From Lytechinus variegatus (lineage: Eukaryota; Echinodermata; Echinoidea; Temnopleuroida; Toxopneustidae), in the NCBI RefSeq assembly GCF_018143015.1, contig NC_054751.1, forward strand, positions 32,564,347-32,628,346: DNA of 64,000 bases, in the 5' to 3' direction. The notes beneath the pieces are model-generated. The model saw only the letters and a list, made by a program, of their open reading frames with translations, ran no database searches and was not told where the DNA came from. Below are positions 4,407-55,766 of this stretch, piece after piece. A program made the translations under genes and the position numbers. Position 1 is the stretch's first letter, and each line of letters opens with the position of its first letter.

Positions 4407-7400
4407 TTAGCAATCTGTTTCTTCTGCGTGAGAGTGTGTGGCTTCATCAGAGCTTTGAGCATTATTCTCGACGTTGATAGGCCTGGCGTTGGCATATTCA
4501 GGTCTGTTGTCACCATCGACATCGCTTTCGACCGTCATCAATGACCTCGGAATGAAATGAAGGTGAACTTCACCTGTCTTTCGCAAGGCTTCAATTATCA
4601 TCTGCGTAACCTAAAAATATTCCAAATTAATTGGGGAAAAACATAAAAGCTGCTAGTGCTACATAAAACAAAATGATAGGAACTATAAATATTCAATTAA
4701 AAAAATGGGGATTTTTTTTTAAATTATGATCATATATTTTTGGGGGGACACTGCCTTGTTTACTTACTCATCCATGCTTTAAAAATGACATCTCAATGCG
4801 ATTTTCACTGATATATTACACCAATCATAATGGTACACTGATTTTTTTTTCCCTCTCAAGTTCCGTTTAGTAGCTTGTATAAATAAAGATTAATGGACCG
4901 CTAATCTCTCTTGTCAATTTTTCGTCCAATCTCAATCAAAAGAAATGACATTATGATCTATATTTATCATATACAGGATGATGAAATAGATCCGAAAATA
5001 TCGTTAGGTACTTGCCCGTTTAGGTATGTATAAGTTATCGGAACTAAATTCTAGGTATAAAACATGGTTAAGGTTGAATAATCATACTGCCATTCAACCA
5101 CCCTTATGAAACTTAACTACACATAATTTATTATATTTACTTTTCCATTCGAGCAACATTGTCTCGAAAATGTAAAATTTCATTCCCATTGAAATGATTT
5201 GTAATACAACAATGTCAAGTATAACACTGGCAATACCTTAGATCCCCTTTTTGGAGGTTATCTTTTTGGTTTTTTAATTCACTGGCCTTTCCGGTACGAG
5301 ATGCTTGTTGTTATTCATCTCTTTATGATTTTATTATTTCGTTAGTACTAGTAATATGTCAATCATAAATGCATCATATTCCATTTGATCTAAGAATGTG
5401 ACATGAACTAAGGTAAAATACATATACTTCAACATCTTTTACATATTTAAACCCCACCAAAAAAGTTAATATCAAACCTGGTCACACTGTGTTCCGACTG
5501 GTACCGGCTTGTTATCGATCTCTGCGATAGTAAGATCTGTCTGATATGTATCAAATTGATTATCGGTGGAACATGCTCGCATCACAGCCTCCGCTGTATC
5601 GGGTCTCTGTAAGAGTGAATGAAAATTATATAATAACTACTCGTAGAAGAAGGAGGGTTTTCAATAAGGAGTTTCGATACCGTTTCTTCCTTAGATGAAA
5701 ACATTGAAAAGCCAAAAAAGTGTACTCTTGGGTCTTTGGTCCAAAAAAAAAAAAGATTTGACAAGCAACAAAAAAGTCCGTCTGTCAAATTTGTTAGTAT
5801 TTCGTCCCATACATATTGTTTTCCTTTCCCATTTTTTCTTGCTAATTTGGAAAATTATCAAAAATATTATAATAATCATAACCATAATCATCACTATATA
5901 AACATGATGAAATGTCTTTAATAGGATGATAAAATAAACAATAGAATGCTTAGAATACCTTGGAACCTTTAAAGGTAATATTCGTTTCCAATTCTCCTTC
6001 TCTTATCGTTACTTCTTCACCTCTTGTGATGGACAATGAGATCTGATAAAAGAAAGATGACGTGAAATTATTCAAAAGAAATGTTAAACTATTATACAAC
6101 AAAATTCGAAAGGTAAAAATCTAAAAGATGACATATTTCTTCTGTGATAAAATTTAATACAAACCTTAACTATTGAATGAAGTGATATCTACACAACGCC
6201 ACCCTAATCTGAACTTACAGAGTTATGATATCTGATTCATATGTGATACTGATAGGACAATTCAGACTGAGATAATCTGCCTTATGGTTGAGTTTATTTG
6301 AATCAAAAGAATACAATTTTTAAATAGCAAAATTTTGAAATGTCGTCAAATCGAATTTTTAAGAAAAAGAAACAGAGATTCGTCCTTGTTAACTTTTCAT
6401 CATTCCCATAATATGTTAACAGAGTTGTTAACAAATGAATACAGTGATTGTGACACAGGCTCACTGTTTTAACAAGATTATAATCAGTTTCTGCTCCTAA
6501 AAATGGTTTAGGTCCTCATATTATAGGAAAACAAAATTAGTTTTGTAGATCACTACATTTTTTTTTGGCTTTTACATACGGTAGTATGAACAAAAATGAA
6601 AATTCAAGATTTCAAATAACAAATATCTAACAAAAAGTCCGGGCTTATGATAGCACCATGCAGCTCACTCATTTCAATTTCAGTTTGGTTTTTAGTTCTC
6701 ATTTCTCACAACCAAAATACAAATAAAATGGACTTATAAAACACATTTTACATTAATATACAGGTACCACGAGGCGGTGACAATTTCATATTCCCCTATC
6801 AACAATTCCTAATATTACAAATTTTAAGTGAAAAAACTGTACAAACCATTCCATTTTCTTCATCAGATGTTCGTATGTATTCTCTCAATCCTTGAGCATT
6901 CATGCCGGTTGGCCCCTCAGCGCCCCTTGGAGCTACGCGATCTCCAATATGCAGTTTGCTTCCATCCACATTACGGGTTACACTGGAAAAATCGTAAAGA
7001 AAAAAATGGTTAAAAAAATAACCCTTCTTTTGATAACATGAAATCTCGAAATATTGCATGAACCAATGAGACACATAATGATGTTGAGAGTTATCGTAAA
7101 AATACAATAATCTGTAAGAAAAAAAATAATAATGATCTCCCCTATTCTTATAGAGATTATTCCAAAAATCTTTTTTTTTAATCTTAGCATCGTTTTTAAC
7201 TCAACTTTTGTTTATACCTTTGCATCATGGTGCTAATTTGGTTTGTGCTTTTACCTATATACTTTGTTACATGACAATGAGAAACAAATCCATTTTTATT
7301 GAAATGATATTACTTACATGATCTGATCGTTGTAATCCGTGAACTGATGCCGAAGAAGGTGATCTTTGGTGCATTCTAAGTCCTCAGGCTTTGGGTTATA

Positions 7401-7789
7401 GGAACTAACATGGTATTGACAGAAAATGAGCGAATGAACTTATATTTCGTTTCCAAATTTGTGATATTATTAATCAAATACACTCACTTAAAGGTTACAC
7501 AGAGAAATGTCCAAAGGCGTAATGAGATCAAACTAAAAGATGTGTTCTTTAAGATACTTTGTCTTAAACTTAAAAAAAACGGGATCGAAGTAAGTAAACA
7601 CAAAATCTACATGGTTAATAATCACAATAATTGCTGAAAATAAAATAGATTTTTATCATAGGCGGCCATTGGCGGCGGAAGCCACAAATTTTAGGAGGGG
7701 ACAAAAAAATTTTGACAAGCAAAAAAAAAAAAAAAAAGGTTTTCAACCCAAAAATTTTAAGGGGGACGTAGGAACATAAATTGAGAAGC

Positions 7790-7830
<41 letters not shown>

Positions 7831-10800
7831 AAAGTCATCAACAAAAAATTTAGGGGGGGGGACCGTCCCCCCCCTCCTCAAATTTAGGGGGGACACGTCC
7901 CCCCTGTCCCCCCCGCTTCCGCCGCCTATGCAGGCGGCGATCCTGGGGGGCACAGTGCTTTCCCATAGGTGCCTGGTTTTTTTTAGGTTGTCCATAAAAA
8001 CCACTATTTTCATACCGATTAATGGCCCGGTTTCTTTAGCGGTCTGTTTTCTTCTACAATTAAGTGTATCCTTTAATCGCATAATCCCTTTAAAAATATG
8101 ATTTGCCCCTTTAGCTACTTCTTTTAGTACAAGTAGTAGCTGCTTCTAGTAGAATGTTCAGTATGTTATTGTTCTGATGGCGTCCCTTTTCCTTTGGAAA
8201 AACTGTTCCTATTACATGATTTAAAAAAAAAAACATTTTAAATTGATGAATTTCACATACAATTATTCTCGAGGAATACAAGGTTGTTGATATTCGAAAC
8301 AAAACGCTGCGCAGAGGAAGAATGTATACGTGTTCAATAACAGCATCATTATTAAGAAACAAGAAATCAATATATTCTCATTTTTATATGTTACTACTTA
8401 TGAGGAAAAAAAATTGCAAGAATAATCCTACGTGCCTCAGTTTCATGAGTTATTCAATTCAATTCATTTTTTATTCCATTTCCATTCAAAACATAATACA
8501 AAGTAATATAAAGTATTACAAATCAAATACAATTTCACAGACGAGTAATCTTACTTCGTAAAACAAAACAAAAACCAGTATAATATTGAGCATAAATGGA
8601 AATGAGGGAGGTCCACTAAAAGTGGGGTAGATAAGTCTTTCCCCCTTTGTTTTTAGATAGAGCCATTTTCAAATGAAAAAGTGTCCTTTTTCCCTGTGAC
8701 CACCCCCCCACACATACACACACACACACACTTTCAACTTCGCTCCGCCCCGGCGCCCCCCCCCTGATTTTTGAAAGAACTTAGAGGCAAGAGACATGTT
8801 ATCATCATACAACTTTTATGAAAGAATGAAATAGAGGGCCGGAGCCCCAATAACAGCAGGAGGGAATATCTCTTTGATTTTTATTTCATGTATTGATTAA
8901 ATTTAATGTCAATTTAACTAAATATTTCCATGTTATTCTTGGTGAATTTAGTCTTAAAGAATGAAAAGGAAGATATTTCAGTAGCGGGCCTACCATCTGG
9001 ACTTCAAGCTGCTGAAGGATGAGAGATCACTACTATCCGAGCATTCGCTGCTCGGGGAATCTTTTCCGGGAGCTCTATTATGGAATCCCGCCTGGTCAAT
9101 TCGAAGAGATGGGTGGCATGTTTCCTGTTGTTGATGGTTGGAAGCTATATTTTGTTCTCCGAACACATTGTCTTGGTCATGTTGGTCGTCGAGTTCAACG
9201 ACCTGTTTAGAGAAGACAGTATGATATTTTGTTTAAACGAGAGGAAAAGTAATTATTTTGCTACTTGGTAACATAATTATTGCGGTATAAATGTTTTGAA
9301 TACTTGTACATGTAGTTAATTAGCATGTTATCATTCAAGTGGGTCTATATATAGACTACATGCATGCACTAGCATTCTGGGTCAGGAAACTGGCCAGGCA
9401 TGAGTAGTTGAGAACTCGAGATGGTGCTATTTCATCCTCAAAAAAAGATTGCAAAAATAGCAGAAAAAATGATAAAAAAATATCGGCGAAGAGTAGAGAA
9501 AAATCCATCAAAATAAAAAAAACTATTAGATTTTTAATTATTTAATTCATTCGATTTATTTTGATTTGTGACGTCATATGCGCGTATATTTCCTACATAT
9601 TGTATGGTTAATACTCAGTCAATGCCATTTTCTCAGAAAAATTGATTTCTTTTTTTTTACTGTACATTCAGTATATCAATAGACAATCAATTATCACTCA
9701 ATTTTTTTACACCTGTTCCTAAAAAGAAAAAAAAAGTAAGTCATCAAGAACCATTAAAATATAGAAATTTCTGCATTTTATATTCATTACATTACATTAG
9801 GGCAGCTGCTCGTTTTTGACGGCACAAATCCAAAATTTAACATTCTAATTAAAGGTATTGTTTAACTTCGTGAGCAGCCGATTTAAAAAATTCTCAAACC
9901 AAGATGAAACATGTGTACAAGTGCATGTGTTAGAACTAATAAACCCTGAAAACAACCATTATTGAGAATGAAAAGCTAAAACTACAAGGCAAACCCCGAT
10001 TTTGTAAATAGGCGTCTTATAGACGCATAAATAGTACACATAAGTGTATGGGATGAAATTAAGATGGTGTTTCCGGTCACTTTATATTTCAATTTTTGAA
10101 GCACTAAATAATTATTTTCGAACGCATTTTTTTCTGGGCTTCATTTTTGTAACATATCACAGACACAGGTGACAAGTGTGACCTTCTAGCTCAGATTTTT
10201 TAAAAGTCAAACCAATGTTAACCAATCGCTTTAACTTCTTACATAGGCCCAATATATTTTTTTGCTAGTTTTAAAACAAAATTTTCTTCAGAGTGAACTT
10301 CCCCTTTAGTTGTATTATCAGTATTACTATTTTCCGTCAAATTAGTTTTCCCAATTTCGAAGGGAAACAAAAAGGGACTGTGAAAAATCCTGATGGCTAC
10401 AAAAGGCATGGGGACAACTGCCCGCCCCACCCCCTCTGCCCTCTCTCTGATTTTTCAAATGGTGAAAATGATAGGAGAAAACTAAGAAGGGAAAGTAAAA
10501 ATAAAAGAAGACAGGCAGGAGGGCACCAAAATGGGAGTTATTGAGCGAGGAAAATGCGTCGTCCTCTCCCTATCACCGTCCCTGCTTATGATGATAATGA
10601 TGAAATTATTTATTACAGGATTTTTTCAATCATAAGTCGATATAATACTTGCCGTTTTGTGACTTGGTAGGAATGCCGAATTATACCGTTTCTTTGGTTT
10701 TGGTTTCTTCATTGTTTGGAGATTCTCAGTATTTCGTCGTTGAGGAACTTCCACACCCATTTTCTCACAGAAAAACGCGTACCACTCTTCATAAACTTCA

Positions 10801-13181
10801 CTGAGGAAAAAAATGTAAATGAATTAATTGCAACTGTCTGATAAAAGTTTAGGCCTAAACTTCTATCTAGGCCTATACTTCTACTTCTATACTTCTGGCA
10901 CTAAGTGGAACGGTGTGTTTAAACAAATTTATCAGTTCTATATACTGTATATACCAGACAGATTGAAATAATAAGTGTATTCAATAACCATTTTGTTATG
11001 ACATTATATAAACTTTCAAAGGAAATTGTAAGTGAAATTAAACTTCAACTTTATTTCAACAATTAAAAATGATTAATGTATAGATTTCAAAAGTTGAATT
11101 TGAATTGGAATTGAAGAAAATAAATCATCACTTGTGCGATGTCAATCCAGTAGAAGAAGAATCACAACAAAATGAGGAAACACCAACAGAATTTTCGTAT
11201 TTTCTTTTTTTTTTACCTCTCTCCCATTTCCCCGAATTCTGTTCCGTTTTCTTTGATGAACGTGCCCACTCCATTCAAAGTGGTTCTCATCGTTTGAAAT
11301 TTTTAATGCTTTTTGTGTGTGGGTCGGTGTTGGTTCAGTGTTGGTGTGGATATGTATAGATCTTAAGATATACACTAAATTTTGAAAAGGAAATGTTGAA
11401 TTCTTACAATACTATAGATACGTAATTTGATTAGTTTGTGTTTGTGTTCACAAATCTATCCTATATAAACTGGATTTAATGAAATGAGAAAAAAGAGAGA
11501 ACATAATTGTTAGAGCTTTGATGAAAATCCATTAAAGAATAACTCAGTTATAATTATTTTGTGATGTCACGGACAAGCATCTCCAAAATATCGTAAAATA
11601 TATATTTTTTTTTGTGAAGGTGATTTAATTTGTGCGGGAGGTATATCATAAGACCAGGGGCGGATCCAGGATTTTGCAAGGGGGAGCACATGAAAAATTT
11701 GATAATCAAAAGAAAAAGACAAAAAAGGTCTTTGCTTTCAAAAGGGGGCACACTTACATTTTTAACGGCATTTTTATATTACAAATTTTAATTGTGCCTC
11801 TCAAAGGGGGGGGGGGGTTCGGGCCGGCTGTGCCCCCCCCCCCTTGGATCCGCCAGTGCATAAGACATTTGCTTTCATACCCCATTCCATACGAAATATG
11901 TTTTTATTCAATCATGTTCCATAAAATAGAATTTATGGAATTATATTTCATATTCAAGGTGAACTTGATGACGGTGATAATGATGATGAGCGTTTGTATA
12001 GCGCCATTTATCTGTAAAAGAATCAAGGCGAAGGTTCCCCAATTTGTCACACGTCTATTCACACATGCAATATAATACAATCTCGATGCAAATGATTTAC
12101 CTTGTCTCCTCCGTAAAGTCTAGAAGCAACGTCTGGGGTTTCTTTCTTGGTCCACATCCTATGATGAGCCATTTCCTCTCAGGCTCCTTTAGTTTAGTAA
12201 TTTCATGTGGTTTCAGGGACATAAAATCATCATTTTTGTCATAACCACCATTTTCATCATGATCATGAAAGTAGATCTTTCCACAAGATGAGCACCGGAC
12301 CAGGCTATTAGTTCTCTCCTAGAAACAGAACAATGTCAAGTATTTTAGAAATTTTATCAGAATAAGTCGATTAAAGGTGTACCGTTTCAGAAAGAATCGT
12401 TAATCGTATACGTTTGTGATTGGTTGAGTCAAGTTGCACTAAGATCACTGAGAAAACATGACTTAATTCTCTTTGAAATGTAATTCTTTTGCAGGGTGAT
12501 GCTTGAAAAGACTGCAAGTTTCTTTGCAATTAATCATTTAATGTGCTAAAATTAATAAAGTTCAAACCTGGTGTATAAGCACCTTGATGGGATCAATGAT
12601 ATTTCATTCTGGATCTACTTATCAATCATTTAGCACACTACAAAAAAATGAAGTGCTAATTTAGCACTCACGGTGCTTGCATAGTGACTGCACTTACGAG
12701 TGCTGATTTTTAGTTCAAATTTAGACTAGAAAAACAGCACTCGTAGTGCAGTCACAATACAAGCACTTTAAGTGCTTACAATTAGCACCTTATTTTTCAC
12801 AGTGTATGACTATAAAATCACATCTAAAGGGAAAATTGTTATATATAAAAAAATAGATAGCTGACGTTTTATAAAAATCAACAAAACAATTTTGATCGTT
12901 TTGTTAATCAGATGTAATCCCCATTATATGACTTTTTAATTAGCAAAGAAATTGTAATGATAATCGGCAATATGACACCCACCTTTATTTTCGTGACAAG
13001 AACAATAACAACAATAGTAACAGCAAAGAATATTAATATTGACATAAAATTAAGATTAAACATATACCTGCTTATATAAATCATTGTTTGCACTCTTATC
13101 AAATGACACCCATGGCAGCACAGCTTCTTTAGTTTCCTGCTTCAACGTAGAAGGGCCTGGTTCTTCTGTAGAAGTCATCAT
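4407..13181 (-). CDS. Gene A: PH-like plus two tandem PDZ-like domains, about 442 aa, nine coding exons
   Basis: Seen: coding exons (5' to 3' on minus) 13068-13181, 12101-12318, 10653-10800, 8994-9202, 7318-7404, 6847-6982, 5959-6042, 5478-5606, 4407-4610; they total 1329 nt and stay in frame to the stop at 4407. All acceptors are AG. Donors are GT except exon 3, where only a GC donor (ACG|GCAAGT) keeps the frame. The start is the first of two adjacent ATGs. Residues about 12-125 form a PH-like domain with WLIIGCGP and a closing helix EVYEEWYAFF. Residues 161-230 are an acidic, Ser-rich linker. PDZ-like module 1 (about 245-320) has KLHIGDRV and LREYIRTSDEE. PDZ-like module 2 (about 325-400) has LTIAEIDNKPV and ends GEVHLHFIPRSL. 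A tail of about 40 aa ends in EETDC. Inferred: an adaptor or scaffold protein. No classic GLGF loop is visible, so both PDZ calls are fold-level guesses. Family name unknown. Exon structure matches genes C and B. Confidence 0.82.
7657..7930. mobile_element. Non-autonomous element with GC-rich terminal inverted repeats
   Basis: Starts CATAGGCGGC...GGCGGCGGAAGC and ends GCTTCCGCCGCCTATG. The interior has a poly(A) run of over 30 nt and blocks of G and C. It sits in intron 4 of gene A. Possible ORFs through it are low complexity. Confidence 0.55.
8452..8640 (-). mobile_element. LINE 3' UTR fragment
   Basis: Its reverse complement matches the 3' end of the LINE fragment at 26560-27640 (shared ttactttgtattatgttttga and a GAATTGAATTGAA-type tail). 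Only the 3' tail is present, as in a strongly 5'-truncated insertion. Confidence 0.6.
9855..10235. repeat. Possible dispersed repeat in intron 3 of gene A
   Basis: A compact block that I recognise only loosely as repeated in echinoid genomes. No second copy is in this window, so support is weak. Confidence 0.25.
11655..11858. mobile_element. hAT-like MITE, GGCGGATCC family, perfect target duplication
   Basis: Starts CAGGGGCGGATCC and ends GGATCCGCCAGTG. It is flanked on both sides by cataagac (11647-11654 and 11859-11866), a perfect 8-bp duplication. It lies in intron 2 of gene A. Confidence 0.85.
11950..12030. mobile_element. SINE fragment with GCGC-box 3' motif
   Basis: Sequence with gcgtttgtatagcgccattt resembles the 3' modules at about 26480-26560 and 58550-58620, which also carry AGCGC boxes and lead into AT-rich tails. 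Confidence 0.3.
12625..12806. mobile_element. Palindromic MITE (AGCACT type)
   Basis: The two halves are near reverse complements: left has GTGCTAATTTAGCACT and GACTGCACTTACGAGTGCTG, right has the inverse of both. Ends are CACTA-AAAAA and TTTTTCACAGTG. It is in intron 1 of gene A. Confidence 0.7.
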
Positions 13182-13319
13182 GACTTGATATAGTCTGAAT
13201 ATAAAAAACATATACTCAGAAAGTGCGTGCGATAGTGCAAAATAATGCATGTCTGCATAAAATTGAATTCATTATATTGCACATTGTAAAAATGGGGTGT
13301 TAACATTTAAACCAGTAGG

Positions 13320-13650
13320 TTGGACCCGGGAAAGGACCAGCACACACTCCTTGTAAATATTTGTAAATAGTTGTGGCACATAATGATTTTTTCTCGTGTG
13401 TAATCGCCAGTTTTAAATTTTTAGTGTTTTCCATATTTATGTATGTATTTCATATATCCAAAGTTGTGACAACAGCTCAAGCATTTGCTTATATTGTCAT
13501 ACCACTGCATGTCTGAAACCTTGGTATAATCAGTTATGTAAATGATCATAATTATACATTATTATTATGTAAAATTTAATGTATGTAATTTTGTGATATT
13601 CACACTATGTACATTGTCATGACATGCAGAAACGAATAAATAAATAATAA
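13320..13650 (+). mobile_element. Possible LINE 3' tail
   Basis: A stretch ending in AAATAAATAATAATAA after a non-coding block; looks like a LINE 3' UTR with a short-repeat tail, but carries no ORF. Confidence 0.25.
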
Positions 13651-13659
13651 TAAAGGGGC

Positions 13660-14510: not shown

Positions 14511-14711
14511 TGTAAAATAAATAGAGGAAGTGATTATCATGATAATATATGATCATTTTTTATCACGAGCCCCTCTTCGTCCCACGCGATAATGTGCGCA
14601 AATACTACATTCCCACCCGCTTGGCCCGTTGAGCGGACCAGTTTGTTATTTTCATGAACCACAAAAAAAAATCCTTTTGAAATTTTGATGGGTGCACTGA
14701 GCCGCAATTTT

Positions 14712-33570: not shown

Positions 33571-34162
33571 ATCGGTTAATAGTTGGAATTGTTTATGAAT
33601 AACTTTTACCGGTTGGGTGCGCATTATAAGAAAAAAAGGAAGTTTATGAAATTTATTTTGGTTCCTGTATGGGTCCACCGAGACAAGTATTTTTAATTAT
33701 GACGTCGAATGTTGACTACCATCGGTAAATCGATTGATTCACGTGGTGTGCAAAATCAAATTTACAACAGAAATTCTGATTTATGTCAAAAAAGAAAATA
33801 TTACTATACGGTATAGTTAGATATAAACTTTCTCAATAATATTTCAATTTCAACTTATTTGCTCATAAAAAATCCATTCAAATCAATTTCAAGCTGTGCC
33901 TCTGGTGCACTTGCCTTTTTAAGAAAAGGAGTATAATTAAACAACAACAATCATTAAGGACCACAGATAACGAAATAGTTCAGTTAAAATTTTTTTATTA
34001 TCCCTGAAATTACAGAATATAAATTCCATAGAACCTGGTCATTAATGAATTGATATGGCATAGATTACAAAATGACTATTGACTATTGTGTTTCATGAAG
34101 CTGCTCCTACTAATGGGTGACGCACGTTTGACCTTTCGTTTTGCTTATTGATCCTTGCAACT

Positions 34163-34262
34163 CAGGGGCGGATCCAGGATTTTCCAAAGGGGGGGATGCA
34201 ATTTTTCCGGAGGATATTTTGTACCCGAAAAAAAATTATTAAAAAAAGGGTTTTCAACCACA
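34163..34262. mobile_element. Truncated hAT-like MITE, GGCGGATCC family
   Basis: Begins CAGGGGCGGATCC-AGGATTTTCC then a G run; no matching right end. Confidence 0.5.
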
Positions 34263-38971: not shown

Positions 38972-41900
38972 TCAATCTTCATCGTTAAATACCATTCCTT
39001 CTCGCCTGTGTCTGTTTTTCGATGGCGATGTGTTACCATGGTTTCGTAATGTTACTTGATCGCTACTCGGAGACTGTCCATCTGCAGGAACATCGGCGGG
39101 ACTCTTTTCAGGTTGATTTGAAGCTTCGTCCCTATGATTCCTTCGACTGTCCGGTGGCATGGCTGGGGTTGCCACGGGCTTGTTGCCCGAACTAGAGCGG
39201 TCAGTGTCTGACATCACTTCGTTAAGTGATTCTTGACCTTGCTCTTCACAGATGACCGACCCATCAAGTTGAGATAATGATTGAAGGAGACAAGCTGGTT
39301 GGAGATGGATGATTGTACAAGTTTCCAGTGGCATTTCTTTATCGTCAACCTACCAGAAAGACAATGGAGAAAAGAGCATATGTCGGCATACAGATGATAA
39401 TCGTGATTAACATTGCCGTGCACAACATAATTAAACAAGAGCAGAGGGCAGTTGCCACCCCCCAACGAAATTTTGAAAATTTACATTTTTTGTGCAAAAA
39501 AAAATCCTTCAATTTCATTTTAGAGAATGCTTAAGTGCCCTACACACTAAGAAAAATAGGTTCTACTTTGTACCATTAAAGGGGCAGACCAGATGTTACA
39601 CTGGGCGTATCTTTAGTTTGCAACTTTACACTTTATTTGTAAACCTGCATGTTTGCACTTATCTTATAGGTGCAAATTAGGGAAAGAGTTCCATTATGTA
39701 CCCCACCCCCTACAAAACACAATAGATTGTCGAGACTTCCGGTTTCTTCACTTTTTTTCCTTTTTCTTTTTTTTAATCTTATTATTTTTATTTTTCCAAA
39801 GTATGCAGATAGGCCTAAATGAGACAGATTATTACCGTATTTTGCCGAAATTCCGTCTCTTCTGTGAATTTCACGTCGTCTGTTACAGCCAGAGTTGAAC
39901 TTTGATTTCCGGATATAGTGCATGGTAGGTGACGTATTACTCTCATCACATCTTCTACATCGATTTTGATCATCTATATAGGTTAAAAGGTTTAGACTTA
40001 TTACCACTCTTAACCCTAAATAGACTGGGCTATTTTGACACCAAAGAAGACTGAGAAGGGGGGGGGGGCTGATTTAGCCCCCCTTATGATCTCGGCCGTC
40101 GATCGTGCGATCGCGACGAAAATGGGCAAGCACATTACCCATGGCATAATCTACAAAACTATAAGATCGAATTCTGTGTAAAATCTCATTGCTTATTATT
40201 TATGCATAAAATCAAAAGTTTGCTCTAGTTTACTAAACAATGCCCCTAAAATGCTAATTTTTGGTATACAGACTCTTTACAGGGATCTGATTAAATGTAC
40301 TTTAAAAATTACAACATCACATTTATCTTTTTATGTATTTTATTGTTTTCTAAATTGTTTATGTATTTCTATGTTTTTTAACTTTTACTTTACAATACAT
40401 AAAAATGTGTGAATATGGAGTGGGAAGCATTGAATAGTCATAATGATTTTGAACGGAAAGAATCAGACTCCAGTGCTATTACACAATGATTATAAAAATT
40501 TCATTTGAAAAATAAATAAAATAAATACTATTTCTCTCTTTTTTATAATAAAATTTGATCACTATCACCAACTTCTTAATATGCGATGAAGTCAGCGTGC
40601 CACGTCGGGAAATGGGCTATTTTGCAAATAAAACGCACTTCTCCGGGTGTACAGTGCGTATCCAAAAAAAAGTTACACTTAGAAAAAATCCTGTAAAATT
40701 ATACATTTGTAATATCCTGATGATTTTCCACATTTTAACATTGGTACAGATCCATTTAAGCAAATGACGATAAAACTGTCGAAAAATATTTCCGCTTGAG
40801 TGAGCACCACTTACTTTTGAAAAGTTTGTGAAAAATGATTTGCGCAGAACTTTGAAATAGTTATGCAAATAAAAGTGGACTTTAATCATGAGGAAAACGT
40901 GGAATTTAGCTACTAAAATTGATTTTAAGATATTTTTTATCCTTTTAAACTTGTTTCCTTGCTCAAAACACCTCGAAAAGTGCATTGTGCCCCATCCACT
41001 CCCCCACACACCGAGGCCATCGTGACGATATTTGTTTTACACTGAGCTGTGATTTACATGAAATGGCTTAGGCTCGATTTTTATTTTGTTAATCATTGTC
41101 AAGCTTGGAAAAAGTGAGGAAAAACAAGTATTAAATGAAATGATAGAAACTTAGTGAAAAATGCTAGAGATGTCTGATATAAACTTTTGTTTAGATTTAG
41201 TTATGTCCTCAGATCCAGCTGGCACAAAAAGGGTAGAGGTTGTGCTTACTAAGTGTTGAAATTTCAATTTGAGTGGTAAAATTGTTACAAAATGCTTTAA
41301 TGTATCCATTTTATTTCAATTGACTATAAGTGCAAGGGAAATGTATGAGAAATATTTCGCAGGGTATGTTTTATTTCGCCCTTTCCCCTCAACACAGCGT
41401 GAAAACGAGCATTCTGCGCAAACAGATTTCTGCAAGTTTTACAAATATGGACAGTGCCCACTTAAGTTTAGCATTCGCTCATACCAAGTACCTCACAAAA
41501 ATCGAAAATCCTTCAAATAAAAATTCCCAGTTATTTAGAATAAATGGAATATGTTAGGGAATTTCATCCAGGGGCGAATATCGTGTTAATCATCTTGGCA
41601 GCAAAATACCGCAAATTACTTTCTACTTGAGTGGGCACTTCGTCTCTTCTTTGTAACTGATGATTTACCATCCTGGTAGATTTTTTTGAAATCCCCGGAC
41701 TTTGAAATTACTGATTGATAAATTTGATGAGTCATGTTGGATTTTCCCAGTCACGGGTTCACTATATCAAAAGTTCGTTCACTGCGAAAAAAAACGTTGT
41801 ATTTCTAAGTATGATTTTATTCTGACACACTATCATCTTGTGTTGATATCTGTGATTTGAAAAAAAGAAAGTACCATAGCGAGGAAGTGATGGAGATAGC

Positions 41901-44900
41901 AAATATATGTTTAGATGCTTTCATGATCAGCCCACATCCAACCATCGCATTATCCGCAAAAAGAAAGTTGTATTTTGGGGCCTGTAAACAAATTTCAAGG
42001 CAGACTCATACCTGGTAAAACACGCAGGGAGCAATTTTTTTCTAACAACCAGAAAATAATATGATCATGAATATCTTCTGTGTTGGTTAAAACATAGAAA
42101 TTAAAGGGATGGTCCAGGCTGGAAATATTCATATCTCAATAAATAGAGTAAATTCACCAAAGCAAAATGTTGAAAATTTGCTCAAAATCGGATAACAAAG
42201 TTATTGAATCTTAAAGATTTGCATTATTCCGGTGATACAGTTCTAGGCATGTCTTCATGAATATTCATTAGGTGGGCTGATGATGAATATGTCATATCCC
42301 CACCTATTCTTTTGTATTTTATCATAAGAAATCAGGTTTATTCAAAAAATTTCTACCAAGAACTAAGACAATTGAATTGACATCTGATCAAGTGCATTAG
42401 TTATTCATTGCAGACACATCATTTACACAATTTCATGTATGAAAAAAATAAAACATTTATGATTTCATGTAATAACATATAAGGAAAAGGAAAGTGGGGA
42501 TGTGACATCATCAGCCCACCTAATGAATATTCATGACGATGTGCATATAATTGTTTTCACAAATCTTAATAAAATTTAAAATTCAATAACTTCGTTATTT
42601 GTTATCCTATTTTGATGGATTTTCAGCATTTTGCTTTGTGAATTTTACTTTATTATTTAGATATAAGTATCCATTTAGATAGACAAAATTCACACTGGAG
42701 GGCAACCTCTCTCCCCCAAAGCCCCTCTTACTCTTTCAGGGTCAATAAGTTCGAAATTACTTATAGAAATAATTCTTACCTCATTGCTCTTGACATTAAT
42801 ATGAAAGCCCTGTTCATGCTTTGAGATAGCACATCGAACTCCATGATTTATACGAAGAGAAATCTAAAGGAATACAAGAATAAAAAACAGATATTTCATA
42901 CAAAAATATAAGAAATAATGGAATGACATGTGAAATAGAACTACCCAAAAAATGATTTGTTTTAATCTTTGCAAAAAAAAGACATGTGAGGTACAACAGC
43001 ATACATGAAAAATGAAAGGTAGTATTGAAACATATAAGGCGCTCATATTTACTCTGCATTTCGCTTGGTTCTGTAAGTTTTTAGCCCATTAACATTATGA
43101 CCATAATAACCCTTTGATTTAGCCACTTATACGACGCACAACCGTTTCAAGAAATGAATATTCATATCAGGTATCCACTAGCGTACCTACGCCCCCCCCC
43201 CCCCCCCGACGAGCCACAACGCATGTAAAGGACGCATCCCTGCCCCCCCCCCCCGACGAGCTTGAAGACCTTTTTTTTGCTTGTCAATTTTTTTTGCTGG
43301 TACGAAATCCTTTATTTGTGATCGAAGATCTTTTCTTTCTTTTTTTTGCTTGTCAATTTTTTTGGAGGACGGTTTTGCCCCCCTGTGGAAAATCCTAGGT
43401 ACGCCACTGCAGGTATCCATTACTTCACCAGGGTCAAGTGTAGCACAATAATGTATACATTTCTTGCAGAAGAAAATGGCAGGGATTCGAATCCAATTGA
43501 ATGTCAGAACCACTTGACCATCACGCCTCCAGATTTACTACTAGAATTTACTTAATTTTATTTATTTCCTGGAACTGAAAAATGTCAAATTAGGCCTTAC
43601 TTATTGTTGTTTATCATGATCATTATAGAAGGGCTGAAGGGGATCGTTTAAAAGGAATGACCTATTAAAAATCATTAATGAATTATTCATGACATTATTC
43701 AATAGACACAGGATATTGCGTCAAGAGGGTGAGAATTGTTTTGAACCACTAATCAGTTTACTTTACAAATCTATATATTTTATGGTTTTCATATTACAAC
43801 CGTATTCCCACGTCAATTATCAATTGCTATAATGATTATTATATGAGATTTGTCTCATTCATTTGTATGACTTCCTATGCGTGTCAAGCAGTCAGAATTC
43901 TATTCGAATAATTAATTTGATTGTTAGTTTCGGTATCACTTTGCTTTCGCATTTCCCTGTCTAGACTTGTATGAGCTATATTTTATAACTAACCTTTTCA
44001 GAGTCGCTTCTTTGAATATATTTGGACATTTCTCGGGCAGTCATACGTTGTTTGGCATCTATTGCAAGAATTTTATCCCCATTGTGTAATCTTGATCCAG
44101 CTTTCGTTGATTTCACACTATTTGGAAGAAAATAATATATATAATAATAAAATAATTGTAAAATACTTAGAAAAAATGACAGTTTTCATGAAAATTATTG
44201 TAAACGAATGTACTGTTAAACAATGCTTCGTACTATGTTCTGTACTATAAACGTATGCGTGAGGGTAAGAATATTTCTAATCATGCCAATAAAATATGTC
44301 AAATGATTTATAAAAACGGCAATAATTAACAACAACAAAATAACAATGACAGGCCATACGGAATTCACAGATTTTTTTGACATGTTGCTTTGTCTCTCTC
44401 TTCTACCCCCCCCCCCCCCTCCCTCTCTCCCCTCTCTTTCTTTCTCTCTCACCGTCTCTGTTATGTCACACACACTGAGATTTCAGCTGAATGGAATGGG
44501 AACTATCCTTTTTTATCTTTAATGTGCCTTATTTCAAACAAAGTACAAATGAAGTTCATAAAATAATTGTGTTTTCGTTCATAAAACTTGCTATCATTTG
44601 CAATAACAGTTAAGATTCTGGGACCTTTGTTATTTTTAGTATACATTAATGATATAGTAAATTCATTTACCATTCTTTCTCTCATCGTATTCGCCGATGA
44701 TACTAATATTTTGTTATCTCACAAGGACTTACCAGAATTAATAAATACAATGAATTTAGAATTAAATAAAGTTTCATCATGGTTTAAATGTAATAAGTTA
44801 TCTCTTAACATAAGTAAAGCTCATGTTATGCATTTTCAATCATCTCAAAGAAATGAAAATTTTACACAAGATATTAAAATTGATAATGTGCCTTTAGATA

Positions 44901-47900
44901 AAAAAAAAGAATACGTAAAATTCCTTGGTATCACAATAGACAAGCATTTATCATGGACTCCACACATAAGCAACGTGTCTTCCTCTGTAGCTAAAGGAAT
45001 TGGAATACTATGTAGACTAAAAAAAATCTTACCAGAGAAATCTCTTGTTATGATATATAATACATTGATTTTACCATAATATTCACTACTGTAACCTCAT
45101 TTGGGGGAATAGCTGCAAGACAAGGCTTAATCATATACTTTTATTGCAAAAGAAAGCGGTTAGAATTTGTTCAAATTCTGCCTATCTTTCACACACAGAT
45201 CCTCTTTTTTATCGTCTGAAAATATTTAAGATAAATGACATTAATACTTTACAAATAGCACTGTTTATGTATAGATATAATTACGACATGCTTCCTCCAG
45301 TGTTCACGGATTTATTTTCAGATAATAACAATTTACACTCATATCCAACAAGAACATGCAATAATATTCACTTAAACAATCCCAGGACACTATTTGCACA
45401 TAAAACACTAAGACATCGTGGACCTGATATTTGGAATGCATTGCCAGATTCACTCAAGCTGACAAGATCATTTCATTCCTTTAAACGAACTATAAAAGAA
45501 TTCCAATTAAATCAATACCTAACAAATTGGAAAAAAAAAGAAAATCATTTCCATTGTTATCATTATTTTGATTAGACATTGACTTTTATCTAGAACATGT
45601 ATAAATTAAAAATTGTACATAAAACAATGATATTAAACTCGAAGTGCAAGGAAATATATTTGTTTTGAAATATAAAGTTTGGTGTATGTGGTGTGGTGGT
45701 ATATGGTATATATATGATTATATTTCTCGGTAAACAGACAATGCGAGCACCAGGAACAATGAAGACATAGGCCCTGAGCAAATTATGTCTCATAAAGTTA
45801 TGAAAAAAATGTTTCTTATATAATATAACATTATAATGAACAATAATGTTTTCTTTCCCACTACGTTTCTCCTCCTTTCTCTCTCTTTTTCTCCTTTACC
45901 CCGTTTTTTTTGTTTTGGTCAGCCGATTGGGGGGGGGGCACGTGCCCCCATGCCCCCCCCCCGTAGTTACGCCACTGTGACCATGCCTTTAAATTGACGA
46001 GATTTGTTTAGATTTACTATACTTACCAGACGTTCCCATTTAGATCAACAAGAACGGTACCCATGAGATCCTTTCTCATATATCTTCCTTCAGTTATATC
46101 ACAATTTATTATTGGAGAAAACCTGGCAAAGTTAAAAAAAAGGATTGGATTTTATATTCATTATTTTTTTCATTTCCCTTTTAGCATGTTAAGTGCGTAT
46201 CGACCCGGTATCGACTTAATGTGAAAAATACACAGAGGGTTCACCTCAAGTATGATTTCCAACAGAAAATAAAATCAGTACATACATGAAAAATTTACGT
46301 TCAAATAATGTGAACGAAAATAAACATATAAAGAAATCCACACACATGCATGTATAATATTTTTAAGACAGTTTATGATATCTCATTAAGATATAAATAT
46401 GAGTGTCTGTGGAATCGAGAGACTCACTATAAAAGCATTATGTAGCATTCATATAATATTCATTTGTTTATTTTTAAAAACATGATTCACATGTTTCATA
46501 TGCTTCAGCCAATCGCTAAAATGGTCAAGTCTACAATATACATGGGTTCATGAATAAAAATTACTTGGAAAAAATCCAGATTGGCAAAACCTTTAATACG
46601 TACGAAGCATGACAACACGATATAATAATGCGACCTCGTACCCCCCCCCCCCCTTCAAATGGCGCGACGTTGACCTATCTAATACGTGACTCTGTTTTAT
46701 ACGATGAAATATAATTTCTTCGTGATGTATTTGAGACAATATCTACAATATAATTTATTTGAATTTCTCTTTGTTTCCTTTCTTACCCCCCCCCCTTCCC
46801 CTCCTTGAGGTCGTTGGGGAGGGGTTACTTCATCACCTGTACACCAGTGCTGTTTAGTAAAGAATTAAAATAAACAAAATGTAAGATGGGAGTTTCCGAG
46901 AAAGGGTATTTTTTTACAGAAAGAGAAAGAAAGAAAGAGAGAGGACAAATCAATATTTAGACCTACCATTGTCTGCTATCAAGTAATGAACTTAGGCTGC
47001 TAGGTTGGGAAAGCAGCGAAAAATCGGTTGAATTGGACGGTGACAAAGTCGAATGCAATGACAGCGGCGGCGACGAGGGTGATGGTGGTGATGATGATGT
47101 CGACGATGACGATGATGACGATGATGATGACGACGACGACTCTGTGCGGACCAATTCCACATTCGGACTCGTCTCTCCGCTTTCTTTACTTTGTCGTGAA
47201 GTGGTATGTTTCACTCTCCCCGCCAATTCGTTATTAGTTGTTACTTCCTTTTTCTGAAAAAAAATCAATTCAAAAGCCAGTATAAATGTATTATTGCTAG
47301 AGCTACGAGAGTATTTGTTTCTAAAATGCAGCTTTTATATTTTGTTGTGACTCCCTGTTTCTAAATTAATTAATTCCTATTAAATCAGATAAAGCAGTAT
47401 GATTTTTGTTGTGAGAGCTAGCGAATGAAGTTATCTGACTTGTACGTGATTTATTGATTTAGGACGGCTCCACAGGGACAGGGCCGGTGACCGCCCTTAT
47501 GAGCGTCTTGCCGCCGCCCCCCCCCCCCCCCCAATTAACATACCCTGGCGCCGCCCCCTGGATGTAGTTGTTCTATTTTAGAATGAAAATCAAATAATTT
47601 CATTTTAATGGCTAAATATATAGTCATAATGATTGGTGTGACGACATTCTAATACCATCAAAGTTTGTGTGAAATAGCCTTTCAGTAAATAATTCAGCAA
47701 TTGCAATTGAAATTTCCCCTTATATTTACAGTTAGAATTAATACCTGATTGTTTATTTCATTTTTTTTTCTTACAATAAATTCATATCCATATAATTATA
47801 CAAATTATACATCAAACTTCAAAGATACTGGAAATAAATACTGATGCGATTCACCAATTACAGAATGAAATATTAGCAAGATGTATAGATGTATAGAGCA

Positions 47901-50900
47901 CTCTCCCCTTAGTGCCTACTCTGCATGGAAGGGACTTGAATTCCCCATATATTCATGCTTTTTCTTCAAGAAAAAATGAGAAACATGTATGTATTTTTGT
48001 TTATTAATTGTTATCGACGTGTCGTCTTGAAAGTCAAATTATAGGCTGTGACGTTATACACGTTGGTAGGATTCTTACATACAAAAGATAGGACATACAT
48101 CATGATCTTACAAGTTTTTTTACGTTTTATTTTCACTTTCTTTTTGAGAGAGAGTGTGTGGTGTTTAACTTTTTCAAATATTCGTCGACAAACAATGTCG
48201 ACCAGGGACGAAGAAAGGGTCGACATTCGCATCATCCCAAATTCTGTACGCCACATGAAATATAGAACAGTCGTCCAACATTTTAGTATTATTTTGCGGC
48301 AATAAGTTCAGCGGGGGGGGGGGGCAAACCCTGAATTTGAATAATCCTAATTTCATAAACCAAATAATGGTACATAAATGTAACGAAAGCACGAAGAAGA
48401 TTATTCAGAATACCATTATAAAAAATATTCCATATTTGAATTGTACAAAGCAGTAGAAGAAATCACTTTCTTCATCTTGGAGTGGATGTATATATAAAAC
48501 TATAAAATTCTTACCTTTAGAAGAATGCCTGGTGGCGCAGAAGTTTGCTTGGTGAGTTTCTTTTTTTCTCTTCTTGATTCAATATCAGTTTGTACTCTCC
48601 TAATTCCAAGAGGAGGATTATATTCCTTACCAACAGCCATGCAGATTAATTCTTCCCACTCATCTGCTTGTTTCCTAAAATAAAATATTGAACAAAATAG
48701 ACGATATTTGGCTGTAAATCAAACAAAATACCGGCCTTTCAAGAAAAATATAATTACTGCATAAAAACTACTATTTTGGTAACTTTGCCATCCAATGCAG
48801 GGGCGGATGCAGGATTTTTCAAAGGGGGGGGGGCACATTTTCCCGAGAAATTTTGACAAGCCAAAAAAAGTCCTCGCTTTCAAACGGGGAAGGCACACTT
48901 ATGTTACAACAGCATATTTATATTACATTTGTTTATCATGCTTCTCAAGGTGGGGGGGGGGGCACGGGCCGGATGTGCGATCCAACAGCGTTCCAATGGT
49001 AAATGCCATGGTAACAATGCTCATCACCCAATAAAAATAAAGGATTCCGTGAAATTTACCACTGTGGCAAAGTTACCATAATAGTAACATTTATGCAATG
49101 GGGCCCGGCCAGGTAATGCAAAATTAAGATCTGTTCATAATTTTAAATGTAGAATGCGTGTGATTACGTGGGGTTTCTCCATTAATCAGATGAGAACACT
49201 TGCCTTTTTTCTCAATCTAATTTAATAAATATCTGGACCCCGTTACATAAAACCCTTTCCATTAAAAAAACTTTGGCAATTTTTTTGCCGGAGTTTTTTA
49301 AAGTGTAATTTTCAATGGCATAATTCTGTTTACTATGGCAAAGTTTTATGCAACAGGCCCCAGGACGGACTTTGTTTCACAATCAAGCTTTCACTGAAAA
49401 AAATCAACCTAGATTACATTAAAATAAAGATTTACAAATGATTAGCATGATCTAATGTTTAAAAGCTTGAAGGTTTAAAAACAGCAACTAACAGCAAAAT
49501 ACATATGCAATTATAAATTTACATGTTCTTTTTTAGCAGGGGGATTTTCATAAGAAGTTTTGTCTGTGATTTCCATTGACAAAATACTCTAAGCCAATCA
49601 GACGCCAGGGTTTGCAGTAACTTAAAAGTCATTGAAAATCAGAAACAAGATGATTCGTGAAGGACTAACTCACTTGGTGTCAAACTCGATGAATGTCAAT
49701 ATCGAACCTCCAGGTCCACATCCTATGATAAGGATATTAGTTCCTCGACGTTGTTCAACTGATACCACTGTATTGGTAGAACATCCATTCTCTTCAACAC
49801 CCTTATAACACTTCAGCATCCACTTATTATTATCTTTGTTCAACTCATATGTAAAACGTTCTTTTGTGCTCTGTCGGTTGAAAAAAAGGTTAATGAAATG
49901 AGGATAATCATTGTAGTTCGATTACTAGTAGTTTAACAATAAACATTGTATATTTATAATATAAATGTTGTACATTATTATAGGTTTTCCCGTCCAATTT
50001 CGTCAAAATTTCAACCGATTTAATGATGTAATAATTCAATTTGCAACTAATTTGAATGACCTATGAGATCAGCATTTAAATAGCCAAATACTTAATTTAA
50101 TTTAATTCTACTGGCACGCGATTTCATAGTTATTTCATTTAAACATTTATAAAGAACTTCTCAACGGTACCTTCCTTGCAAACGTTTAGGAATTCAAAAT
50201 CATTAATATGCAATCACTTACAAGATATGGACAGTGTTTTTCGTTGTTGTTTTTTATACTTTTTTTGAATAATTATGGAAATGGGTTTTACCCCTAAATT
50301 GGATGTTAAAAATCTTACTGAATTTTACGTCTGACAGACCATCATCGGAACCACAACTCGTTTTTGTTCCACTTTCATAACTATGTATAGACTGTGGTCA
50401 ATTCCATGATACCCATCCCTTCCCCAAAACCATTCAAATTATATACAATTATGTAAAATAAAAAGTACCTTCCTTGCAAACGTTTAGGAATTCAAAATCA
50501 TTAATATGCAATCACTTACAAGATATGGACAGTGTTTTTCGTTGTTTTTTTTTCTTCTTATGAATAATTATGGAAATGGGTTTTACCCCTAAATTGGATG
50601 TTAAAAATCTTACTGAATTTTACGTCTGACAGACCATCATCGGAACCACAACTCGTTTTTGTTCCACTTTCATAACTATGTATAGACTGTGGTCAATCCC
50701 ATGATACCCATCCCTTCCCCAAAACGATTTAAATTATATACAATTATGTAAAATAAAAAAGAACAAAATGATGAAGAAAAAATACCTACCATTGGCATAC
50801 TAGGTCATCGACACACTCAATGGCGGATCGGAGGGCACAGCTGACTCGTCCCCCCCCCCTTTAGAGGCACAATTATTTTTTTTTCGTGGTCGAAATACCC

Positions 50901-53900: not shown

Positions 53901-55766
53901 AAATGTCATAACTTTCTTATTTTACATCCGATTTTGATGAAATTTTCAGTGTAATGCTTGTTGATTTTTTCTCTTTTTATTCAAATTAAGTTTTAGTTGG
54001 GGTGGACTTGTCCTGTTCCCTCATGTCAGAGTGCATATCTGTCCGCTTGGATTGTATATAGGCCTGGTAGGATGTTTTCTCTCGCAGACGTATGCAGGAC
54101 TCAAGAACAGAGTCACACATTCCAGTTTACATTGTTTAATCATAAATGACAACAATACCCATATAGAGATGTATTATATTGGCAATACCTTGAAGGACAA
54201 ATCCATCCCAACAAAAAGTCGATTTGAATAAAGAGAGAAAAATCCAACAAGCATAACACTGAAAAAAGGTATGACATTTTGAAATTTCGCTTCATTTCCA
54301 CAAGACAGTTATATGCACATCCTGGTCGGTATGCAAATAAGGTGACTGATGACGTCATTCACACTATTTCTTTTGTATTTTATTAAACGAGATGTGAAAT
54401 ATTCTAATATTCTCCAGACTGCCATGTGAAAGGTATTTTATTCTTCCCTGGATATGTGGAATTACCCCGGGAATTACCCCTATTTTAACATCTTGTGGCT
54501 CAGTCAAGTTGGTCATTAATGTTAAATTTGTAAAAAAAAAACAATGGAATATTGTATAATACAGAAGACAAAAAAAAGAAATAATGAGTTTTTTTTTTTT
54601 TTTTTAAACAAGTGCACACCTAGTTACCAGTAATGCATATAGCATTTCCATTTATTTGAAATCAGGATAAAAGAGCATTGTAGATTAAATGCCTTGCTCA
54701 CGGGCATAGGTGCCGCGGCCGGGGATCGAACCCCAGACTTTCCATGTATAGCCAGGCGCCTTAGACCACTCGGCCACGGCACCTCCGTGGGTACGGCATC
54801 ATCGATTACTGTATCTCATTGCATGTACATGTCGCTAAGTGGTGCAATTGTGCAAACAACTATTTTGTGAAAATAAGCGAAACTTCAAAATGTCATAACT
54901 TTCTCATTTTTTATCCGATTTTGATGAAATTGTCAGCGTTATGCTTGTTGGATTTTTTTCCATTGATTCAAATCAACATCTTTTGTGATGGACTTGACCT
55001 TTAAGTGTCCTTGTTAGCCACAACATAAGTTTCTCTATATACATGGTCAAGTATCTGCAATTCGTCGGCTCTTCGTATATACTGATCGAAAATACACTCT
55101 TATTTTTTAGTTATTGTACGTTTTTTGTCTTCAAACGACAACTCTGAAGGGCAGATTTCTCGCTATTACCGGGAAGATGTGAATTTTATTCAGTTTAATT
55201 CAAGTTTAATTCAACGCAAAATCAAGACAGGAAATATATAGCCAAAGGCTGACGTTTAACATGTTTACAATGAACATAATCATATAAAGTTCATGCAAAG
55301 CCATGTAAAAATAGAACAAAAACAAGCAAAACCCACAGGTAGATGACAGAAATTATGGAGAGTTAACAGTGATTGACAATTCTGAACTTAATTACGTAAT
55401 ATATTCTGTTTCATCTTTTATTAAATAAAAATTGATATTAGGGAGTTTGTACTGGCTGATAATTCTGAACAGTTTTTCTTGTTGCATCTTTTTTTATATC
55501 TGGAGATATGTTTACCCCATTTCAAGTTTGATTGAATAGTCAGGTATAATTGTGTTTTTGCGAGCATAACTCTGATGACATTGCATTTATTCGGGTTTCA
55601 TTTCAAATGATTTTTTTTAAGACTATATAGGAAACAGTGTAGATGGCATTGTAATATGGATGAAGTTTACCTGAATGAATTCTGAAGAATATGCTGAACT
55701 GTTCCGTGAGTTAGCCTGAAATCCTAACAACTGTGCCTTTTTCATTACAGAACTGGCGGGTTCCAT
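38972..55766 (-). CDS. Gene B: PH-like plus two tandem PDZ-like domains with poly-Ser linker, about 519 aa, nine coding exons
   Basis: Seen: coding exons 55671-55766, 49674-49870, 48515-48674, 46967-47253, 46027-46122, 43994-44117, 42780-42863, 39836-39973, 38972-39349; total 1560 nt, in frame, all introns GT-AG. The start exon opens at an acceptor at 55800 and holds MEPASSVMKKAQLL. Residues 8-115 form the PH-like domain with NILIIGCGPGG, LTFIEFDTK and closing helix KQADEWEELICMAV. The linker (152-247) contains 16 Ser in 17 residues. PDZ-like module 1 (about 260-335) has TVLVDLNGNV, RLHNGDKILAI and MSKYIQRSD, the most PDZ-like of the three copies. PDZ-like module 2 (about 335-410) has EDVMRVIRHL and ends CTIIHLQPACL. 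A polar tail of about 105 aa, rich in Ser/Pro/Asp/Asn, follows and ends MVFNDED. Introns are larger than in A and C because of inserted repeats. Function inferred only: membrane-linked adaptor or scaffold. Confidence 0.85.
40555..41830. repeat. Possible dispersed repeat in intron 7 of gene B
   Basis: Coherent block with related internal motifs (cgcttgagtgagcaccactt near 40793, cttgagtgggcacttcg near 41625, and the inverse gtgcccactta near 41455). I loosely recognise it as repeated in sea urchins; no search made. Confidence 0.35.
42104..42702. mobile_element. Fold-back element, about 600 bp
   Basis: Long inverted arms: left contains gaaaatttgctcaaaatcgg, aggtgggctgatgatg and catatccccac; right contains the inverses gtggggatgtgacatcat, cagcccacct and gattttcagcatttt. 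Ends ggtccaggctgga / ctccagtgtga. Next to exon 7 of gene B. Confidence 0.75.
43176..43409. mobile_element. hAT-like MITE, GGCGTACCTAGG family, perfect target duplication
   Basis: Starts CACTAGCGTACCTACG, ends CCTAGGTACGCCACTG; flanked by caggtatc at 43168-43175 and 43410-43417. C runs inside. In intron 6 of gene B. Confidence 0.85.
44588..45640 (+). mobile_element. LINE ORF2 fragment: reverse transcriptase palm to C-terminus
   Basis: Frame 44588-45079 encodes GPLLFLVYINDI then VFADDTNILL, the RT catalytic box with FADD at about 44690, and KFLGITIDKHLSW (the later RT motif). It stops after TLILP at 45077-45079. The next 60 nt or so are out of frame, and a second open frame, 45144-45575, gives QKKAVRICSNSAYL, HTDPLFYRL and SFKRTIKEF, the ORF2 C-terminus. 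So the copy is 5'-truncated and broken at least twice between those frames. Family most like the Jockey/CR1 group. In intron 5 of gene B, opposite strand. Confidence 0.85.
45925..45978. mobile_element. Terminal fragment of a hAT-like MITE
   Basis: G run, cacgtgcccc, C run, then TAGTTACGCCACTG, the right-end signature of the GGCGTA-type elements. No left end. Confidence 0.4.
48798..48990. mobile_element. hAT-like MITE, GGCGGATCC family
   Basis: Starts CAGGGGCGGATGC; right end degenerate (GATCCAACAGCG). Flanks atccaatg and ttccaatg match at 7 of 8. In intron 2 of gene B. Confidence 0.7.
50167..50758. repeat. Tandem duplication, two units of about 298 bp
   Basis: Unit 1 (50167-50464) and unit 2 (50465-50758) are nearly identical, differing mainly in a T-run length and a few bases. 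Both start gtaccttccttgcaaacg. In intron 1 of gene B; units do not cover a coding exon. Confidence 0.9.
50818..50991. mobile_element. hAT-like MITE, GGCGGATCC family
   Basis: Starts CAATGGCGGATC, ends GGATCCGCCCCTG. Flanks gacacact and cacccact match at 6 of 8. In intron 1 of gene B. Confidence 0.65.
51656..52237. mobile_element. Fold-back element, GGACTTGTCC family copy 1
   Basis: Inverted arms: left gaaaattttatcaaaatcgg and gtttcgctta; right the inverses, ending ggttggggtggacttgtcc. Related to the next two elements. Confidence 0.7.
52850..53400 (-). mobile_element. LINE 3' UTR with (AGATTC)n tail
   Basis: Starts with several AGATTC units (tail read in reverse), then a stretch typical of LINE 3' UTRs such as aaggattgctaaaagcaacc. 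No ORF2 remnant recognised. Confidence 0.5.
53412..54013. mobile_element. Fold-back element, GGACTTGTCC family copy 2
   Basis: Left end TTAAAGGTCAAGTCCACC, right end GGTGGACTTGTCC. Arms share tttcgcttattt and atcggatgtaaaataag with inverses on the right. Confidence 0.8.
54191..55004. mobile_element. Fold-back element copy 3, interrupted by a SINE
   Basis: Left end GAAGGACAAATCCATCCC, right end GATGGACTTGACCTTTAA, with the same arm motifs as copies 1 and 2. The centre is occupied by a SINE (54587-54786), so the SINE is younger. Confidence 0.75.
54587..54786 (-). mobile_element. tRNA-derived SINE nested in a fold-back element
   Basis: On the minus strand the head (54786 down to about 54709) reads GGTGCCGTGGCCGAGTGGTC with B box GGTTCGATCCC and a 3' CGGCACC matching the first stem. 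The body and a poly(A) (poly-T on plus, 54590-54606) follow. The T arm does not fit a real tRNA-Leu spacing, so it is a SINE head, not a functional tRNA. Confidence 0.7.
55190..55420 (-). mobile_element. Possible LINE 3' end with (TTCAA)n-like tail
   Basis: Starts with degenerate AGTTTAATTCA repeats, then a block with atagccaaaggctgacgttt, itself partly palindromic. Reads like a reverse-complemented LINE 3' end. Confidence 0.4.

What the first reader, a model, noticed from the sequence alone, without database searches (positions are those of the whole stretch)
4407..55766. Three tandem PH-PDZ-PDZ-like paralogues with frozen gene structure and highly diverged protein sequence
Genes A, C and B share nine coding exons, identical intron phases, an 84-nt seventh exon and the same motif order, yet few residues outside the cores (LIIGCGP, DEW, GD, YIRT) are kept. 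That pattern suggests old tandem duplication followed by fast divergence, as in lineage-specific or immune-type expansions. I cannot attach a known family name. They also share strand, and the array may continue outside the window.
Basis: partly seen in the sequence, partly recalled or inferred. Interest (0 to 1): 0.8.

Follow-up and report, generated by a model that had tools for sequence, protein, structure and literature searches.

The report
Sea-urchin tandem PH/PDZ scaffold-like genes
Three neighbouring sea-urchin genes, plus a fourth just outside the window, are old copies of one another that encode unnamed adaptor-like proteins; their exon pattern has stayed fixed while the proteins drifted far apart, and their peptide-gripping domains look partly worn down.

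Summary
The window is Lytechinus variegatus: gene A translates exactly to LOC121425619 (442 aa), gene C exactly to LOC121425261 isoform X2 (412 aa), and gene B matches an L. pictus protein (89%) with no gap at its eight splice joins. All 27 exons hold, with phases 0,2,0,2,2,0,0,0 and an 84-nt exon 7. A fourth paralogue, D, with the same strand and phases but a 102-nt exon 7, lies just left of the window; no convincing fifth copy appears over 154 kb. Seven relatives were found, all sea urchin. PDZ1 is supported (gene D, PDZ_2 E 1.4e-5 though under the curated cut-off); structure searches of A and C rank the syntenin PDZ tandem first. PDZ2 and the PH-like part are weaker. Sequence controls do not support descent from syntenin. 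By alignment, six of eight PDZ domains lack the glycine of the carboxylate loop. Best reading: a small, old PH-like/PDZ/PDZ adaptor cluster with degenerate PDZ pockets. The immune-type reading has no support.

The parts
13068..13181 (-). gene A exon 1 (start ATG 13181)
   Evidence: P0002 exact match
12101..12318 (-). gene A exon 2, PH-like strands, LIIGCGP
10653..10800 (-). gene A exon 3, PH-like C-terminal helix (EEW); GC donor
8994..9202 (-). gene A exon 4, low-confidence (probably disordered) linker
7318..7404 (-). gene A exon 5, start of PDZ1
6847..6982 (-). gene A exon 6, PDZ1 (GD, YIRT)
5959..6042 (-). gene A exon 7, 84 nt, end of PDZ1 and start of PDZ2
5478..5606 (-). gene A exon 8, PDZ2-like
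4407..4610 (-). gene A exon 9, PDZ2-like helix/strand, tail, stop
30019..30126 (-). gene C exon 1 (start ATG 30126)
   Evidence: P0004 exact match
28771..28955 (-). gene C exon 2, PH-like strands
25060..25231 (-). gene C exon 3, PH-like helix (DEW)
23993..24219 (-). gene C exon 4, acidic/Ser linker
23649..23747 (-). gene C exon 5, start of PDZ1
23226..23355 (-). gene C exon 6, PDZ1 (GD, YIRT)
22965..23048 (-). gene C exon 7, 84 nt
21605..21757 (-). gene C exon 8, PDZ2-like
20464..20544 (-). gene C exon 9, end of PDZ2-like, stop
55671..55766 (-). gene B exon 1 (ATG 55766; start codon uncertain, open frame upstream)
49674..49870 (-). gene B exon 2, PH-like strands, LIIGCGP
48515..48674 (-). gene B exon 3, PH-like helix (DEW)
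46967..47253 (-). gene B exon 4, Ser-rich linker
46027..46122 (-). gene B exon 5, start of PDZ1
43994..44117 (-). gene B exon 6, PDZ1 (GD)
42780..42863 (-). gene B exon 7, 84 nt
39836..39973 (-). gene B exon 8, PDZ2-like (shortened)
38972..39349 (-). gene B exon 9, end of PDZ2-like, long tail, stop

Best explanation
An old tandem cluster of at least four genes (in order of transcription B, C, A, D) in L. variegatus encodes cytosolic adaptor-like proteins: a short N-terminal stretch, a PH-like module, a linker rich in Ser or acidic residues with two conserved short motifs, and a compact PDZ-PDZ pair. Shown: the gene structures, the paralogy, four copies on one strand, orthologues in L. pictus (A, B, C) and a C-like protein in S. 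purpuratus. Well supported: PDZ1. Supported but not proved: PDZ2 and the PH-like fold. Inferred mechanism: the PH-like module docks the protein on a membrane or partner. The PDZ pair holds a second partner mostly without the usual grip on a free C-terminus, because the loop glycine that holds the carboxylate is missing, by alignment, from six of the eight PDZ domains. A basophilic-kinase-like site (R/K-x-x-S-A-F type) at the start of the linker could switch the assembly. The copies would then differ in partner choice.
Confidence: 0.55

Rival explanations
1. Derived syntenins: the PDZ pair descends from a syntenin duplicate that gained a PH-like N-terminus, and it still works as a syntenin-type membrane/trafficking adaptor.
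For: Syntenin is the first structural match for two paralogues. The intron before the last PDZ2 helix is phase 0 in both, and a shared proline is the 21st residue of the next exon in A, C, D and L. variegatus syntenin (counted by eye). The real syntenin tandem scores 17.7, above the 95% point (16.0) of 80 shuffles. A recalled human syntenin aligned collinearly over 141 columns, P 0.0012, without a control.
Against: 17.7 is below the shuffle maximum (18.9) and below the median (22.5) of 74 scored tandems: 72 ordered pairs of nine PDZ domains plus real Mint and real syntenin. Three of four family introns in the PDZ region have no syntenin counterpart by eye. The proline spacing fails in B. The structural match may reflect only short loops and a tight tandem.
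Confidence: 0.2
2. Derived Mint/X11 proteins (PTB-PDZ-PDZ), the PH-like module being a worn PTB domain; same layout at the C-terminus.
For: Same order of a PH-superfold domain then two PDZ domains. With the real tail, the L. variegatus Mint tandem scores 20.0 against a maximum of 18.9 in 80 shuffles; its PDZ2 18.2 against a maximum of 18.1 in 96.
Against: The introns seen in L. variegatus Mint lie elsewhere (by eye). A-D lack the Mint-type end PVYI, and the module carries a DEW-type helix. The scores are marginal and 20.0 is below the decoy median.
Confidence: 0.12
3. Lineage-specific immune-type expansion under positive selection.
For: Low paralogue identity (23-44% among the four L. variegatus genes); no named family.
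Against: Only four copies over 154 kb; genome searches with A and C found nothing convincing elsewhere, though B and D were not searched. A and B each have one L. pictus record; C has two (P0005, P0006), perhaps one gene. The gene C PH-like part is identical in both species over 81 positions. No immune domain hit.
Confidence: 0.08

Closest known systems
Syntenin (SDCBP) PDZ tandem
   Same: Two compact C-terminal PDZ domains in tight tandem; first structural match for A and C; one shared phase-0 intron position in PDZ2 (by eye)
   Different: The family has an N-terminal PH-like module; carboxylate-loop glycine mostly lost; sequence score below the decoy median; three other introns differ
Mint/X11 (APBA)
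   Same: PH-superfold domain followed by two PDZ domains near the C-terminal end; a proline-containing motif after PDZ2
   Different: Mint has a PTB domain and a conserved C-terminal autoinhibitory motif (PMC11405698, passages seen; L. variegatus tail ends PVYI); introns differ; no such tail here
Syntrophins
   Same: PH and PDZ in one adaptor; its PDZ gives middling profile scores
   Different: One PDZ inserted in a split PH domain (layout and identification of L001 recalled); no PDZ pair

Membership tests
PDZ domain proteins (PDZ1) | Detectable PDZ profile match and PDZ topology | tested here: met
   Gene D PDZ_2 E 1.4e-5, below the curated cut-off; models of A and C; profile above the 95% shuffle point in 6 of 8 PDZ domains
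PDZ domain proteins (PDZ2) | PDZ profile match and topology | tested here: inconclusive
   PDZ_6 E 0.038-0.085 only, for C and D; tandem structural match for A; profile above the shuffle maximum in 2 of 8, barely
PDZ, canonical peptide binding | X-Phi-G-Phi carboxylate loop with the third Gly (PMC2891790, passages seen) | tested here: not met
   By alignment and model, read by eye: Gly absent in PDZ1 of A, C, D and PDZ2 of A, B, C; present in PDZ1 of B and PDZ2 of D. Binding itself untested
PH domain proteins | PH profile match | tested here: inconclusive
Syntenin | Sequence similarity above that of other PDZ pairs | tested here: not met
   Real syntenin 17.7, median of 74 scored tandems 22.5; above the 95% point but below the maximum of 80 shuffles
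Syntenin | Shared intron positions in the PDZ pair | tested here: inconclusive
   1 of 4 matches, by eye
Mint/X11 | C-terminal PVYI-type autoinhibitory end | tested here: not met
   Last eight residues of A-D against the L. variegatus Mint end
Mint/X11 | PTB domain | not tested
   No PTB comparison was run; PH/PTB share a superfold

The most novel reading that the evidence does not exclude
A sea-urchin-restricted adaptor family in which a PH-like module was joined to a PDZ pair that has largely given up C-terminal peptide binding, kept as a cluster of at least four diverged copies since before the split of Lytechinus and Strongylocentrotus.
Probability: 0.35. Interest if true: 0.5.

Novelty: new variant of a known kind. 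Interest (0 to 1): 0.38.

Why it matters
None of the members scanned has a Pfam model above cut-off, and two L. pictus members carry unlikely database names ('tripartite motif-containing protein 66-like', 'cell surface glycoprotein 1-like'). The cluster is a clean case of fixed exon phases in genes whose proteins have fallen to 23-44% identity, and of repeated loss of the PDZ carboxylate-loop glycine, which a PDZ review calls fully conserved (PMC2891790, passages seen). Binding tests could show what a PDZ pair does without it.

Tried and rejected
Syntenin ancestry looked strong from structure and from one recalled human sequence (P 0.0012, no control). It was demoted after decoy pairs and shuffles. 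Mint ancestry was considered and left open at low weight. In some searches the Mint PDZ2 carried a recalled tail; with the real tail its PDZ2 score fell from 23.5 to 18.2. The decoy pairs were not rerun with the real tail: 16 of the 72 pairs contain that PDZ2, and 16 contain a syntrophin PDZ with three recalled end residues. Chance ORFs: ruled out by RefSeq identity. Weak Pfam hits (IN_DBD_C, Hint, PCSK9_C1, THSD1_D3 and others, E 0.001-0.7) were judged chance: all below cut-off. Exon profiles gave other hits at best E 0.031 (exon 6, one ORF), not taken as exons. dN/dS could not be run: no L. pictus DNA was held. Genome searches with B, D and the PH family did not complete, so copy number elsewhere rests on A and C and on exon profiles over 154 kb without exon 4. 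The protein searches need shared 5-residue words and two of them saw capped or limited candidates (7985, 3477, 6463 scored), so non-urchin relatives are not excluded. Paper searches for six gene/protein accessions gave 0 papers. In three topic searches I saw 15 of 19, 13 of 13 and 12 of 29 papers (titles and starts of abstracts); none is on this family by its title.

Full report
What is there. The window lies in the sea urchin Lytechinus variegatus: the spliced translation of gene A equals LOC121425619 in full, 442 residues, and gene C equals LOC121425261 isoform X2, 412 residues. Gene B agrees with an annotated L. pictus protein at 89% identity, with no gap at any splice join; the only large gap is a Ser/Pro-rich insertion in the L. 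pictus linker. Each gene has nine coding exons on the minus strand, with phases 0,2,0,2,2,0,0,0 and an 84-nt exon 7. All 24 acceptors are AG; 23 of 24 donors are GT and one, after exon 3 of A, is GC. The window sits at G000:C12:32564347-32628346.

The array goes on. A whole-genome search with A found a weak extra match to the left (E 0.02). Reading 50 kb to the left and 40 kb to the right gave a fourth gene, D, at window coordinates -2711 to -16313, same strand, nine exons, the same eight phases, and a 102-nt exon 7. Its exon 1 was chosen by donor score and likeness to exon 1 of A and is the least certain; whether D is annotated was not checked. Profiles of eight of the nine exons found no further convincing copy in the 154 kb, the best other hit being one exon-6-like ORF at E 0.031. 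Whole-genome searches returned, beyond these four genes, two weak hits for C (E 0.06 and 1.05) and none for A. B and D were never searched genome-wide because the tool stayed busy.

Relatives. Three searches of 5.8 billion proteins gave 1, 2 and 5 proteins, seven distinct ones, all from sea urchins: six Lytechinus and one S. purpuratus. The search needs shared 5-residue words, so distant relatives could be missed. In a tree of PH-like plus PDZ1 parts, A lies next to D, and B next to C; the S. purpuratus protein joins C with 66% support. Identity is 56-63% for C against S. purpuratus and 23-44% among the four L. variegatus genes. So the duplications probably predate that species split, but no S. 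purpuratus match for A, B or D was seen. Orthologues of the two Lytechinus species are 88-90% identical. No genome-wide baseline was measured, so 'fast' is not proved.

Is it a syntenin? I rebuilt the PDZ exons of the L. variegatus syntenin gene and the Mint gene. Of four family introns in the PDZ pair, one matches syntenin in position and phase: it precedes the last helix of PDZ2, and a shared proline is the 21st residue of the next exon in A, C, D and syntenin. The other three do not match; this was judged by eye. The family profile scores real syntenin at 17.7, below the median (22.5) of 74 scored tandems, above the 95% point (16.0) and below the maximum (18.9) of 80 shuffles. Mint scores 20.0 with its real tail. 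So the family looks like a compact PDZ tandem, but no parent is established.

Function. A PDZ review gives the carboxylate loop as X-Phi-G-Phi with the third residue, Gly, fully conserved (PMC2891790, passages seen). By alignment and model that Gly is absent from PDZ1 of A, C and D and from PDZ2 of A, B and C. The register of the loop is an inference from low-depth alignments. The syntenin tandem has been solved with a Frizzled 7 fragment and PIP2 (PMC5515355, title and start of abstract seen; chain 4z33), so lipid contact is a known option for such pairs. The linker has a basic-x-x-S/T-A/T-F/P motif and a Ser-Leu-x-Ser type motif in 8 of 8 sequences, with patterns written after seeing them; regulation by phosphorylation is inference.

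Verdict. The finding is sound and slightly understated: four genes, not three. The family is unnamed or misnamed in the records seen, found only in sea urchins here, and unusual in layout and in its PDZ loops. The immune-type reading has no support. Interest is moderate.

Noticed in passing
window 44585-45575 (+): Reverse-transcriptase fragment (RVT_1 E 5.9e-9 for the first of two overlapping ORFs; the second has no Pfam hit) inside the intron between exons 5 and 6 of gene B; looks like a retrotransposon remnant.
   Followed up: partly
window 50167-50759: 295-bp tandem duplication, two copies, 97% matches, in intron 1 of gene B.
   Followed up: no
window 58812-59002 and 60346-60556: Two arrays of the same 15-bp unit in opposite orientation, about 1.3 kb apart.
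   Followed up: no
L052, G000:C17 8213500-8213187: The intron of the L. variegatus syntenin gene after its main PDZ1 exon holds partial repeat copies of that exon, and further down copies resembling the start of the next exon.
   Followed up: no
P0006 (L. pictus): A gene C-like L. pictus protein named 'cell surface glycoprotein 1-like' carries the exon 3-4 linker part twice: a tandem exon duplication or an assembly error.
   Followed up: no
window 1057-1389, 11557-11778, 34113-34235, 48757-48879 (- frame): Similar short ORFs ending in 'NPGSAP'-like stretches match one another: a dispersed repeat that could mislead gene finders.
   Followed up: no
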